A stretch of DNA of 64,000 nucleotides from Psococerastis gibbosa. Taxonomy: Eukaryota; Arthropoda; Insecta; Psocodea; Psocidae. A model generated the notes under the pieces. The model was given only the letters and a program-made list of their open reading frames with translations, searched no databases and was not told where the DNA came from. The position numbers and the translations under genes were made by a program. Location of the stretch: contig OZ020485.1 in assembly GCA_963971405.1 (NCBI GenBank), positions 39,801,469 through 39,865,468 of the forward strand, read 5' to 3'. Positions 46,229-59,570 of the stretch are shown one piece after another (position 1 is the first letter of the stretch; each line of letters opens with the position of its first letter).

Positions 46229-46432
46229 GCCTACAGCTGAGTCCTATAAATTATTATACAATAGTATCAGGCTGTAATAATACAATGGTTATTATAATCT
46301 TCTACCCATGTGCGGGTTCTGTGTCTGGCTAAAAAAAATAAGGTTAAGTATACGGTACATGTCAAATAAAATATAAATGAAAAAAATATAGAACATTTTG
46401 AAAAAATGAAATTATTGTTCTTATACAATATT

Positions 46433-46512
46433 TTTTTTTCTTTTTATTTATTTATTTTTTATTTTTATTTTTTTTTCTCGCTTCTCGGCCTTATGGCTAA
46501 GATCAAAGTGTT
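46433..46512. mobile_element. 80-bp T-rich + U2 insert with 12-bp TSD
   Basis: Within the first unit the sequence TTATACAATATT occurs directly before (46421-46432) and after (46513-46524) a block of T-rich DNA followed by the U2 fragment. Units without the insert have a single TTATACAATATT, so this is an insertion with target duplication. Read on the minus strand it is antisense U2 followed by an A-rich tail. Confidence 0.78.
46478..46511 (+). pseudogene. U2 snRNA 5' fragment, nucleotides ~2-35 (copy 1)
   Basis: TCGCTTCTCGGCCTTATGGC followed by TAAGATCAAAGTGT matches the first 35 nucleotides of arthropod U2 snRNA as I know it, apparently without mismatch. The branch-site pairing region is cut off (GTAGTA is replaced by GTTTTA), and the Sm site and stem-loops III-IV are absent, so it cannot act in splicing. 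Confidence 0.9.
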
Positions 46513-46839
46513 TTATACAATATTATTATTATTGCATAATGTGCGGTTTCTGTGTCAGGCTAAAAAAAATAAGGTTAAGTATACGGTACAATTCAAATAA
46601 AATAGAAATGAAAAAAAAATAGAACATTTTGAAAAAATGAAATTATTGTTCATATGCAATATTATTAATATTGTATAATGTGCGGTTTCTGTGTCTGGCT
46701 AAAAAAAATAAGGTTAAGTATACGGTACATGTCAAATAAAATATAAATGAAAAAAAAATAGAACATTTTGAAAAAATGAAATTATTGTTCTTACACAATT
46801 TTTTATTTTTTTATTTTTTTATTTTTTATTTTTTTTTTC

Positions 46840-46873
46840 TCGCTTCTCGGCCTTATGGCTAAGATCAAAGTGT
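46840..46873 (+). pseudogene. U2 snRNA 5' fragment (copy 2)
   Basis: Identical to 46478-46511, with the same T-rich block before it and TTATACAATATT after it. The left target copy is diverged (TTACACAATT). Identity of insert and position shows it arose by duplication of a two-unit segment. Confidence 0.9.
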
Positions 46874-47327
46874 TTTATACAATATTATTAATATTGTATA
46901 ATGTGCGGTTTCTGTGTCTGGCTAAAAAAAATAAGGTTAAGTATACGGTACATGTCAAATAAAATATAAATGAAAAAAAATAGAACATTTTGATAAAATG
47001 AAACTATTGTTCTTACACAATATAATTATTATTGTCTAATGTGCGGTTTCTGTGTCATTCTAAAAAAATAAGGTTAAGTATACGGTACATTTCAAATAAA
47101 ATATAAATGAAAAAAATAGAAATTTTGAAAAAATGAAATTATTGTTCTTATACAATATAATTATTATTGTCTAATGTGCGGTTTCTGTGTCAGGCTAAAA
47201 AAATAAGGTTAAGTATACGGTACATTTCAAATAAAATATAAATGGAAAAAAATAGAACATTTTGAAAAAATGAAATTATTGTTCTTATACAATATTATTA
47301 TTATTGTATAATAATAATAATAATAAA

Positions 47328-48334: not shown

Positions 48335-49797
48335 CTGCAGTTAAAGTGGAGTGCCGTAAGCTACATACCTCGGAATCCAGGGACAGACCATGAATATTTA
48401 TAAAAACTTTGAAAATGTTTTGTTAGTAGTATATAGAAAAATATTTAAACCTTTTTTTTTGCCCTCTTTCAATTTTCAATTACAGGGTGTGGCAGCATAA
48501 CTTGATTTTTTGTAATGCGCGCCATTCGGTCGGTTTATGTCGTAGCGGAGTGTTAGTGGTCTCGTTCGAGAGGCGGGACTATACACTTTTGACATAGGCC
48601 TACATAGTTTCGAAGATCAAAACATTTAGATCACGTCGCCCATTCTCGATACATTGAGTATTAGTGGAGCGCCGTAACGCAAAACAATGGAAAAGCCGCG
48701 GAATTCAGGGACAGTCCATGAATATTTATAAAAACTTTGAAAATGTTTTGTTAGTAGTATATAGAAAAATATTTAAACCTTTTTTTTCTTTTTGCCCGCT
48801 TTCAATTTTCAATTGCAGGGTGTGGCAGCATAACTTGATTTTTTGTAATGCGCGCCATTTGGTCGGTTTATGTCGTAGCGGAGTGTTAGTGGTCTCGTTC
48901 GAGAGGCGGGACTTATACACTTTTGTCATAGGCCTACATAGTTTCGATGATCAAAACATTTAGATCATGTCCCCCATTCTCGATACATTGAGTATTAGTG
49001 GAGCGCCGTAACGCAAAACAATGGAAAAGCCGCGGAATTCAGGGACAGTCCATGAATATTTATAAAAACTTCGAAAATGTGTTTTTAATACTATATAGGT
49101 ATAGATGAATGTTAAAAAAAATTTGGCCCTCTCTCAATTTTTACCTACAGGGTGTGGCAGCGTAAATTCCTGTTTTGAAATGCGCCCCATTCGGTCGGTT
49201 TATGTCGTAACGGAGTGTTAGTGGTCTCGTTCGAGAGGCGGGACTATAAAGTTCTGTCTTACACAGTTTTGAAGATCAAAACATTAAGATCACGTCTTCC
49301 CATCTCGATACTTTGAGTATTAGTGGAGCGCCGTGAGTAAAAAAAAACATTGTAACCCTGTAGTTTTACATTGAGAGGGGGCAAAAGGTTTTTATAAATA
49401 TTCATGTACTGTCCCTGAATTCCGAGGTTTTTCTATTTTTTGTGTTACGGCGCTCCACTGATACTCAATGTATCGAGAATGGGGGACGTGATCTAAGTGT
49501 TTTGATCTTCGAAACTATGTAGGCCTATGACAAAAGTGTATAGTCCCGCCTCTCGAATGAGACACACAAACACTCCGCACTACGACATCAACCGACCGAA
49601 TGGCGCGCATTATTACATAAAAGGAGGTTATACTGCCACACCTTGTAGTTAAAAATTAAGAGCGGGCAATTTTTTTTTAAACATTTTTCGATATACTATT
49701 AACAACACATTTTCAAAATTTTTATAAATATTTATGGACTGTCCCTGGATTCCGAGATTTAACAATTTTTTTGTCTAATTGCACTCCGCTATTAAAG
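48335..49797. repeat. Inverted array: three ~330-bp units facing one inverted unit
   Basis: CATGAATATTTATAAAAACT marks units at 48389, 48717 and 49051 (spacings 328 and 334). Each contains AGGGTGTGGCAGC, CGGTCGGTTTATGTCGTA, GTTAGTGGTCTCGTTCGAGA and GGCGGGACT. From about 49370 to 49797 the same blocks run in reverse complement. The outer ends mirror each other (GGAGTGC then TCGGAATCCAGGGACAG). GTAGCGGAGTGTTAGTGG and CGTTCGAGAGG look faintly like polymerase III A and B boxes but are only about 25 bp apart. No coding frame. Confidence 0.88.
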
Positions 49798-52289: not shown

Positions 52290-52600
52290 ATAATAATTAA
52301 TATTGGCTTTTGTTCTATTACTAAGCCAACCTAGCGGAAGTAGGGCTATAAGCCCTCTCTTACACTCAACTAGGAAAGCCCGGGACCGCCAGCTTGACAT
52401 GCCCTCCAAAGCATGGGCAGAAAATGTAGGAAGTGTGGAGTTAGGGCTATAAGCCCTCTCTTACAATCAACTAGGAAAACCCGGGACCACCAGCTTTACA
52501 TGCCCTCCGAAGCATGGCCAGAAAATGTAACAAGTGTGGGAATCGAACCAACAACCTAGCGGGTGAAAGTCAGAGTCTACCACTACTCTACATGTCCCCA
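52290..52600 (-). mobile_element. SINE-A copy with 101-bp internal duplication
   Basis: The body block (TAGGGCTATAAGCCCTCTCT through GGCAGAAAATGTA) appears twice, at about 52341 and 52442, followed by a single tRNA-like head (GGTTCGATTCC B box, minus strand). A tandem duplication inside the SINE, or a SINE inserted next to a truncated one, would give this. Confidence 0.78.
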
Positions 52601-52724
52601 TGTCCATGTTTATGTTTCAGACGATTCTGCAAAAGAGATGGCCGATCACTGGACTGTGTCGACGGCATCGAGAGCTTCGACATTTTGTATACGGTACTGT
52701 ATTAAACAGTACATGATTATACAT

Positions 52725-53009: not shown

Positions 53010-53345
53010 TAGTAGGATTTAGTAGTCGGGACCCAGGCCACAATTTGAATCCATAGGTCCCCCAGTCGCACTATAGTCGAGCCCCACTGCTTCTGCGAAT
53101 CTCGCCATGGCGGCATGGCCCCGGGTCGTCAGTAGCAATATAGTGCACTCCAGATGTTCGAGTCTTGGGCGCCAGATTATATGGCACTCGACGATTATGT
53201 GCCATCCACTTTCGACCTCCATCGCACAATGTCGGAAAATATTATTGTCCACTTGCACGCCAATCCGGGCGAGGTGATGCCTGAAATTCCCGTGACCAGT
53301 GAGCAGGGATATCACCTGTATGTATGCAACATAGGCTAAGAACGT
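53010..53345 (-). pseudogene. LINE ORF2 C-terminus and 3' end with ACT tail
   Basis: The minus strand reads LLTGHGNFRHHLARIGVQVD, NNIFRHCAMEVESGWHIIVE, then CHIIWRPRLEHLECTI, and ends GPMDSNCGLGPDY. This is the C-terminal zinc-knuckle region of a Jockey-, R1- or I-like ORF2. The first cysteine of the knuckle is phenylalanine here (it is cysteine at 34660). The frame is open for 111 codons. The 3' end GTGGCCTGGGTCCCG plus ACTACT repeats is shared with SINE-T. Confidence 0.85.
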
Positions 53346-53929
53346 AATATTCACCAGATAGAGTGCGAAACCAAAGTTGAAGCCTCAGTCCCTCTCTTTA
53401 AAAATTTTCGAGCAAAAGTTATCGCTCCAAGATTCATAAAGAAATTGCTTGCTTAGTAAAAAGAAGGTGGCCCTGCTCTTATATTCTGTCAAAGTGTCCG
53501 TACCATCAACAACGAAGCTTCAAATAAAAGTAAACTTAAGACGTTGAGCTGTGCTGGGGCTGGTATCGATTGACTTGTGGGAGATGTTTTTGGAGCTCAA
53601 GAGGTAAAACGAAGAAATGAAGAGTGACGCTCTGGGTTTTGGAAGATTCTCTTTCAGCAGCGAGAAATGAGTATTGGAAAGCAATTTAACGGATATTTCG
53701 GCTCATTGGTTGACAAGTCAGCTGTAATCAGCACATTCCCAGATAGTAATGGACTGGGAAATCCAGAGGCCCATCCAAGCTGCTGAATATTAAGATTGCG
53801 CATGACAAACGACTGGTTTGCTTATTAGGGGTATACACAGCGTTGGTAGAAAAGGGAAAAAAGGAAAATGGGAAAATAGAGAAATAACTCAGTGTGAGGA
53901 TACCTCCATAGAAATAAAGAAATATAAAT

Positions 53930-58611: not shown

Positions 58612-59570
58612 AGCTGAGGTAGCTTGCTGGGCAATTCCGGCATGGGCAAGCTGTCAGCTGTTGTATACTTGTGTGTCTGGCATTGATATGAGCATTGCTA
58701 AGCAATTCCTTACACCCGATATGGGCAAGCTGTCAGCTGTTGTCTCAAATATATTTGTGTGTCTAGCATTGATATGAGCATTGCTAAGCAATTCCTTACA
58801 AGTTACACTCGATATGGGCAAGCTGTCAGCTGTTGTCTCAAGTATATTTGTGTGTCTAGCATTGATATGAGCATTGCTAAGCAATTCCTTACAAGTTACA
58901 CTCGATATGGGCAAGCTGTCAGCTGTTGTCTCAAGTATACTTGTGTGTCTAGCATTGATATGAGCATTGCTAAGCAATTCCTTACAAGTTACACTCGATA
59001 TGGGCAAGCTGTCAGCTGTTGTCTCAAATATATTTGTGTGTCTAGCATTGATATGAGCATTGCTAAGCAATTCCTTACAAGTTACACTCGATATGGACAA
59101 GCTGTCAGCTGTTGTCTCAAGTATATTTGTGTGTCTAGCATTGATATGAGCATTGCTAAGCAATTCCTTACAAGTTACACTCGATATGGGCAAGCTGTCA
59201 GCTGTTGTCTCAAGTATATTTGTGTGTCTAGCATTGATATGAGCATTGCTAAGCAATTCCTAACACCCGATATTGTATGTCTACCATTGATATAAGCATG
59301 GCTAGGCAATTTCTAACACTTGGCATGGGCAAGCTGTCAGTTATTGTCTCAAGTATATTTGTCTGTCTAGCAATGAGACAGCATTACTGGGGAATTCCTA
59401 ACACCCGGCATATAGGCAACCTGTCAGCTGTTGTCTCAAGTATATTTGTCTATCTAACCTTGATTTAAGCATTGCTATAGGCAATTTCTAACTCCCAGCA
59501 TGGGCAAACTGTCAGCTGCTGTCTCAATTACATACATACTGTATGTATATTTGTATGTCCTGCATCGATG
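58612..59570 (+). repeat. 93-bp minisatellite with E-box, diverged flanks
   Basis: TCTAGCATTGATATGAGCAT recurs at exactly 93-bp steps (58762, 58855, 58948, 59041, 59134, 59227). Each unit holds CAAGCTGTCAGCTGTTGTCT, with a CAGCTG E-box. Core units are almost identical. Units on both sides (58612-58760 and from 59227 on) are shorter, lack GTTACACTCG, read ACACCCGATATG or ACCCGGCAT, and are increasingly diverged. Because 93 is divisible by three, both strands show long open frames. These are by-products, not genes. Confidence 0.95.

What the first reader, a model, noticed from the sequence alone, without database searches (positions are those of the whole stretch)
46300..47325. U2 snRNA head inserted into a tandem repeat and amplified as a higher-order repeat
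Two units of a ~138-bp array contain an 80-bp insert with nucleotides ~2-35 of U2 snRNA preceded by a T-rich tract. The insert is flanked by TTATACAATATT, present once in units without it, which is the mark of retroposition. Both inserts occupy the same position and the U2 parts are identical, so the insertion happened once and a two-unit segment was then duplicated. The orientation is odd: relative to its A-rich tail the U2 is antisense, as expected from template switching with inversion (twin priming) rather than a plain U2 retropseudogene. U2-headed retroposons (SINEU-type) are known in other animals, so an alternative is capture of such an element.
Basis: partly seen in the sequence, partly recalled or inferred. 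Interest (0 to 1): 0.85.

Follow-up and report, generated by a model that had tools for sequence, protein, structure and literature searches.

The report
Inverted U2 snRNA fragment in tandem array
A short piece of a splicing RNA was probably copied into a small tandem repeat by a retrotransposon's machinery, back to front relative to its A-rich tail; this is a known kind of accident, and the same genome holds a complete example that shows how it happens.

Summary
Two of six ~138-bp units carry an insert of T-rich tract plus U2 snRNA nt 2-35, identical to the host's own U2 (34/34 in both). In unit 1 it lies between exact 12-bp direct repeats; in unit 3 the left repeat is decayed. No other copy of the 138-bp unit was found in the 409-Mb genome, so it is not the body of a U2-headed SINE. 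But the event is not unique: 8 of 12 independent copies of the U2 5' end stop at nt 33-41, at or just past the 5' hairpin. One (C12:46.68 Mb) is a complete inverted chimera: 13-bp TSD, antisense U2 head, 5'-truncated LINE, (AAT)n tail, TSD. The window insert has the same polarity with only an A-rich tail as partner. Best reading: twin priming, the second nick priming on U2 RNA in trans, as proposed for human U/L1 chimeras. A simple 'two-unit duplication' is not supported, because unit 4 resembles units 1 and 3 more than unit 2. New member of a known kind; modest interest, raised by the recurrent U2 stop and the RNase H-bearing partner LINE.

The parts
46309..47313 (.). tandem array of six ~138-bp units (bodies 108-112 bp; insert-free spacers 27-29 bp, AT palindrome-like)
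   Evidence: no other copy of the unit found in the genome
46421..46432 (+). left target-site duplication of insert 1, TTATACAATATT
46433..46476 (-). T-rich tract (44 nt, 38 T) = A-rich tail on the - strand, insert 1
46478..46511 (+). U2 snRNA nt 2-35, sense, insert 1
   Evidence: 34/34 to host U2 (full-length copies L009-L013)
46513..46524 (+). right target-site duplication of insert 1
46791..46799 (+). left target-site duplication of insert 2, decayed (TTACACAAT)
46800..46838 (-). T-rich tract of insert 2 (39 nt, 35 T)
46840..46873 (+). U2 snRNA nt 2-35, sense, insert 2
   Evidence: 34/34
46875..46886 (+). right target-site duplication of insert 2
46652..46678 (.). unit junction without insert (after unit 2)
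47013..47039 (.). unit junction without insert (after unit 4)
47148..47174 (.). unit junction without insert (after unit 5)
47285..47313 (.). unit junction without insert (after unit 6)

Best explanation
An inverted U2/retroposon chimera made by twin priming. A LINE machine nicked the + strand at the spacer and began target-primed reverse transcription on the A-rich tail of an RNA, giving the T-rich tract (inferred). The opposite strand, nicked 12 bp away, primed on host U2 snRNA in trans at the unpaired strand just 3' of its 5' hairpin and was extended to the U2 5' end (inferred). The two cDNAs were joined and the gaps filled, leaving TSD - T-rich - U2 nt 2-35 - TSD (shown). Later exchange between units of the array copied the insert to a second unit (identity and position shown, route unresolved). 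I saw nothing that points to a function.
For: Structure and TSD. Same polarity in a complete chimera at C12:46.68 Mb (L033): 13-bp TSD ATGGCTTTGATCC (0 of 200 shuffles), antisense U2 from nt 37 (41 with one mismatch) to nt 4, then a LINE cut inside its RNase H domain (profile positions 99-139 of 141 matched) with (AAT)n tail. One search scored 40 matches of that LINE, L033 included, at 97-100% identity; of the 12 fetched, one is L033 itself, one (L080) lacked the seed used to align, and of the other 10, 9 continue upstream where L033 has U2 and 1 (L078) is itself truncated there. A second T-rich + U2 1-36 insert with a 7-bp repeat lies at C3:27.82 Mb (L032). 8 of 12 independent U2 5'-end copies stop at nt 33-41 (P about 3e-8 under uniform ends); nt 3-34 fold as one hairpin and nt 35-39 are mostly unpaired. 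A U2 copy ending in 21 A at nt 168 (L022) suggests that A-tailed templates are used here, though its 8-bp repeat is weak (10% of shuffles). Precedent: PMC4476161.
Against: No LINE body in the window insert, only the A-rich tail; its partner RNA is unknown and the tail differs from the (AAT)n of the L033 LINE. The TSD of L032 is short (6.5% of shuffles, 14% of random flanks). Flanks show no significant complementarity to U2 beyond the stop (17 of 48 matches against 13.8 expected, P 0.18; without L033 and L025 13 of 36, P 0.24; L025 was entered one or two bases out of register in that test). The cleavage site AT/AATA in tail orientation is only loosely LINE-like (by eye).
Confidence: 0.75

Rival explanations
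1. Plain tailless U2 retropseudogene: a LINE reverse transcriptase primed inside U2 at nt ~35, and the T-rich tract is filler added at the 5' junction or a later microsatellite expansion.
For: L051 (C1:25.56 Mb) is this without a T tract: U2 2-33/34 with TTGGAAACT abutting (0.5% of near shuffles, 10% over the whole 1.5-kb left flank). PMC5322556 (abstract and the part of section 14 seen) describes U2 among tailless retropseudogenes cut at single-stranded sites. Extra bases at the 5' junction occur in L025 and L028.
Against: The T tract lies inside the TSDs and is tail-like in composition; L033 shows a LINE in the same place and orientation.
Confidence: 0.17
2. A U2-headed SINE (SINEU-like) that includes the 138-bp unit.
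For: U2 heads recur in the genome.
Against: No copy of the unit was found outside the array; by eye no two U2 heads share a downstream body except the local pair at C3:3.865 Mb.
Confidence: 0.02
3. By-product of a U2-gene-targeting LINE (Utopia or Keno), which cuts U2 between nt 38 and 39.
For: The stop cluster (nt 33-41) straddles that cut; the unit holds TGTTCTTAT (U2 nt 42-50) next to the insertion point; L018 resumes at U2 nt 38.
Against: None of the 12 copies is mapped to end exactly at nt 38. All 10 places with U2 nt 39-66 are the 5 full-length copies or 5 pseudogenes already read (L017, L018, L022, L028, L030), none of them an element followed by U2 from nt 39; L018 joins nt ~15 to nt 38 with nothing between, an internal deletion. 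The LINE at L033 lies 3' of the U2 head, not in a U2 gene.
Confidence: 0.04
4. DNA-level capture: filler DNA copied from a U2 locus during repair of a break at the AT palindrome spacer.
For: The insertion point lies next to the centre of the 27-bp spacer, which is a perfect palindrome around one base in one junction and imperfect in others, a plausible break site.
Against: Among the U2 copies read only L032 also has a T-rich block directly upstream, and it differs from the window (one substitution in U2, other flanks); a 12-bp duplication and an A-rich tail fit target-primed reverse transcription better.
Confidence: 0.02

Closest known systems
Inverted U/L1 chimeras attributed to twin priming (Doucet et al. 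2015, PMC4476161; passages, section 6 whole)
   Same: 3'-truncated snRNA in inverse orientation to the retroposon, TSD round both, stop in a single-stranded region for the U5 cases; 7 copies proposed (4 U5, one each of U1, U2, U6)
   Different: Window: partner reduced to an A-rich tail, later copied inside a tandem array. L033: partner LINE carries RNase H and an (AAT)n tail. The host does not look like a mammal (my inference, not tested)
Antisense RNA/LINE-1 chimeras (PMC13174262; passages, section 17)
   Same: antisense RNA segment at the 5' side of the LINE taken as a sign of twin priming
   Different: LINE-1 chimeras in human evolution
Tailless retropseudogenes (Noll et al. 2015, PMC5322556; abstract, section 14 part 1 of 2 and passages)
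   Same: U2 among the sources, stop at defined single-stranded sites
   Different: no T-rich tract between TSD and RNA 5' end; L051 and L030 here fit this class, the window does not
Utopia and Keno, U2-targeting LINEs (PMC4640811; parts 1-2 of 5 read)
   Same: involve U2 near nt 38
   Different: insert into U2 genes; no such disrupted U2 gene among the 10 places
SINEU of crocodilians (Kojima 2015; recalled, paper not seen; one search listed two papers that hold the word, cites SINEs with U1/2 snRNA)
   Same: U2-derived head
   Different: a propagating SINE with a common body; none seen here

Membership tests
Inverted snRNA/LINE chimera (twin priming) | snRNA segment 3'-truncated, 5' end near complete | tested here: met
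   U2 nt 2-35
Inverted snRNA/LINE chimera (twin priming) | snRNA antisense to the retroposon part | tested here: met
   U2 sense lies on the T-rich strand; judged against the tail only in the window, against a LINE reading frame in L033
Inverted snRNA/LINE chimera (twin priming) | one TSD enclosing both parts | tested here: met
   12 bp exact in insert 1, decayed in insert 2; 13 bp in L033
Inverted snRNA/LINE chimera (twin priming) | recognisable LINE (or SVA) sequence as partner | tested here: not met
   only an A-rich tract in the window; met in L033
Inverted snRNA/LINE chimera (twin priming) | LINE endonuclease-like site in tail orientation | tested here: inconclusive
   AT/AATA read by eye; no statistics
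Tailless retropseudogene | TSD directly abutting both RNA ends | tested here: not met
   39-44 nt T-rich tract in between; met in L051
SINEU-type SINE | dispersed copies sharing U2 head plus body | tested here: not met
   all 11 matches of the unit lie in the array
Utopia/Keno insertion | U2 fragment starting at nt 39 beside the element's 3' end | tested here: not met
   0 of 10 places

The most novel reading that the evidence does not exclude
The strand of U2 just past its 5' hairpin (nt 35-41, at the branch-site-recognition sequence) is a preferred second-strand priming site used by more than one LINE of this animal, so that LINE insertions are repeatedly capped with an inverted U2 head. That would tie the choice of trans template to the exposed strand of the U2 particle and show a route by which U2-headed elements could arise.
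Probability: 0.25. Interest if true: 0.6.

Novelty: new member of a known kind. Interest (0 to 1): 0.38.

Why it matters
It extends inverted snRNA/LINE chimeras from L1 to a LINE with an RNase H domain in another host, and shows a sharp, repeated stop in U2 that can be tested biochemically. It also shows how a retroposed fragment can be copied within a small tandem array.

Tried and rejected
U2-headed SINE: rejected, no copy of the unit found outside the array (the tool skips very common words and scores only its best candidates). Utopia/Keno by-product: not supported. Simple dimer duplication: not supported, though later conversion could have hidden one. Priming by complementarity between flank and U2 beyond the stop: no significant signal. 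No convincing TSD for L034, L036 and L025/L031. Dropped before the end count: L055 (chance-level match; the reversed control gave 18 hits at up to 2 mismatches, against 0 in the control), L017 and L018 (5' end missing or internally deleted, not in the pattern lists). L025 and L031 are one local duplication and count once; the two window inserts count once. The uniform-ends model behind the P values is crude. Ten of the 21 longer window frames were scanned with Pfam, none matched.

Not done: naming the host (six COX1 requests found the machine busy); a like survey of U1 (all busy); U5 and U6 were not tried; the Utopia/Keno proteins were not searched. A paper search for snRNA, twin priming, invertebrate and chimera together returned 0 papers, and one for U2 snRNA, SINE, snRNA-derived and retrotransposon together returned 0; these are narrow word searches of one library, and I make no claim from them that nothing is in print.

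Full report
WHAT IS THERE. The array at 46309-47313 has six units. Two junctions, after units 1 and 3, carry an insert; four do not. Insert 1 reads TTATACAATATT, 44-nt T-rich tract, C, U2 nt 2-35, T, TTATACAATATT. Insert 2 is the same with a 39-nt T-rich tract and a decayed left repeat. Rfam's U2 model matches both (34.9 bits, below its gathering score of 46; nothing at gathering). The host's own U2, read from five full-length copies (L009-L013, 181-182 bits), matches 34 of 34 bases in each insert, including two positions where it differs from the vertebrate U2 that I recall.

HOW MUCH IS CHANCE. A 34-base match is not chance. The two T-rich tracts are the only such tracts in the 64 kb. The 12-bp repeat at insert 1 is met in 0.6% of random flanks; insert 2 fails that test (39%) because its left copy is decayed.

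THE REST OF THE GENOME. The window lies in a 409-Mb genome of 68 contigs whose name is withheld. No copy of the 138-bp unit was found outside the array (11 matches, all in it). U2 nt 3-33 with up to 3 mismatches occurs at 17 places, none in the reversed control: 5 full-length copies and 12 others, two of them in the window. (nt 3-21, up to 2 mismatches, 19 places, 18 in its reversed control) adds L049, L051 and L055; I kept L049 and L051, which continue as U2, and dropped L055. Taken together and with duplicates joined, 12 independent copies of the U2 5' end remain. Their last U2 bases are 35 (window), 36 (L032), 37 or 41 (L033), 36 (L034), 33 (L035), 36 (L036), 33-34 (L051), 41 (L025/L031), 59 (L049), 147 (L030), 168 (L022) and 179 (L028). 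Eight of 12 lie in nt 33-41. Uniform ends between nt 21 and 188 would give this with P about 3e-8. In the predicted fold, nt 3-34 form the 5' hairpin and nt 35-39 are mostly unpaired.

THE KEY LOCUS. L033 (C12:46.68 Mb) has a 13-bp direct repeat, antisense U2, about 20 nt of filler, 0.66 kb of LINE 3' end with an open frame for the end of RNase H, (AAT)n and the repeat again. One search scored 40 matches of this LINE (of 57 candidates) at 97-100% identity, L033 included. Of 12 loci fetched, one is L033 itself and one lacked the seed used to align; of the other 10, nine continue upstream with LINE sequence where L033 has U2, and one is truncated at the same point. So U2 sits at the LINE's 5' truncation point, inverted. 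This is the anatomy of the inverted U/L1 chimeras for which twin priming was proposed (PMC4476161, section 6).

READING THE WINDOW. The window insert and L032 have the same order and polarity, with only an A-rich tail in place of the LINE. L051 shows that U2 heads can also insert without any tail, so a tailless insertion with T-rich filler remains possible. I prefer twin priming at 0.75.

SPREAD IN THE ARRAY. Both inserts sit at the same base of the spacer with identical U2 parts, so one insertion is likely. Unit bodies 1, 3 and 4 differ from each other at 2-4 sites. Unit 2 differs from unit 6 at 3 sites (plus 2 gap columns), from unit 3 at 4 and from unit 4 at 6 (plus 1). A clean duplication of units 1-2 would make units 2 and 4 alike, which they are not. 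Unequal exchange or conversion fits; its path cannot be read from six units.

AGAINST. The window has no LINE body; the repeats at L032 and L035 are weak (L035: 2%, 10.5%), and L034 and L036 have none that is convincing; flank complementarity to U2 is not significant; L018 resumes at U2 nt 38, close to the Utopia/Keno cut, though as an internal deletion.

Noticed in passing
L049:1500-1940 (C20:17.21 Mb): A U2 pseudogene (nt 1-59) split by a MITE-like element with inverted ends near GGCGGGGTTTCCACCGACC and an 8-bp duplication CCTTATGG, hAT-like in size (by eye).
   Followed up: partly
L025/L031 (C3:3.865 Mb): A U2 head (nt 2-41) with extra 5' bases, present twice about 177 bp apart with shared flanks: a local duplication.
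   Followed up: no
L033:1553-2241: A young LINE family, 40 matches scored at 97-100% identity, RNase H and zf-RVT-like C-terminus (the latter below Pfam's cut-off), tail GACAT(AAT)n in the copies read.
   Followed up: partly
window 52530-52620: tRNA-like SINE motif (GTAGAGTAGTGGTA and GGTTCGATTCCC) on the - strand; a similar GTAGCGTAGTGGTA stretch lies in L005. ARAGORN called no tRNA. The SINE label is my recall, not a test.
   Followed up: no
window 53019-53384: - strand open frame that looks by eye like a relic of a LINE C-terminus; no Pfam match.
   Followed up: partly
window 48371-49334 and 58663-59265: Two more tandem arrays (334-bp x 2.9; 93-bp x 6.6, the latter with long open frames on both strands).
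   Followed up: no
L028 and L025: U2 copies with partial repeats of the U2 5' end in front of nt 1 (CGCTT-type stutter), as if the reverse transcriptase slipped at the RNA 5' end.
   Followed up: no
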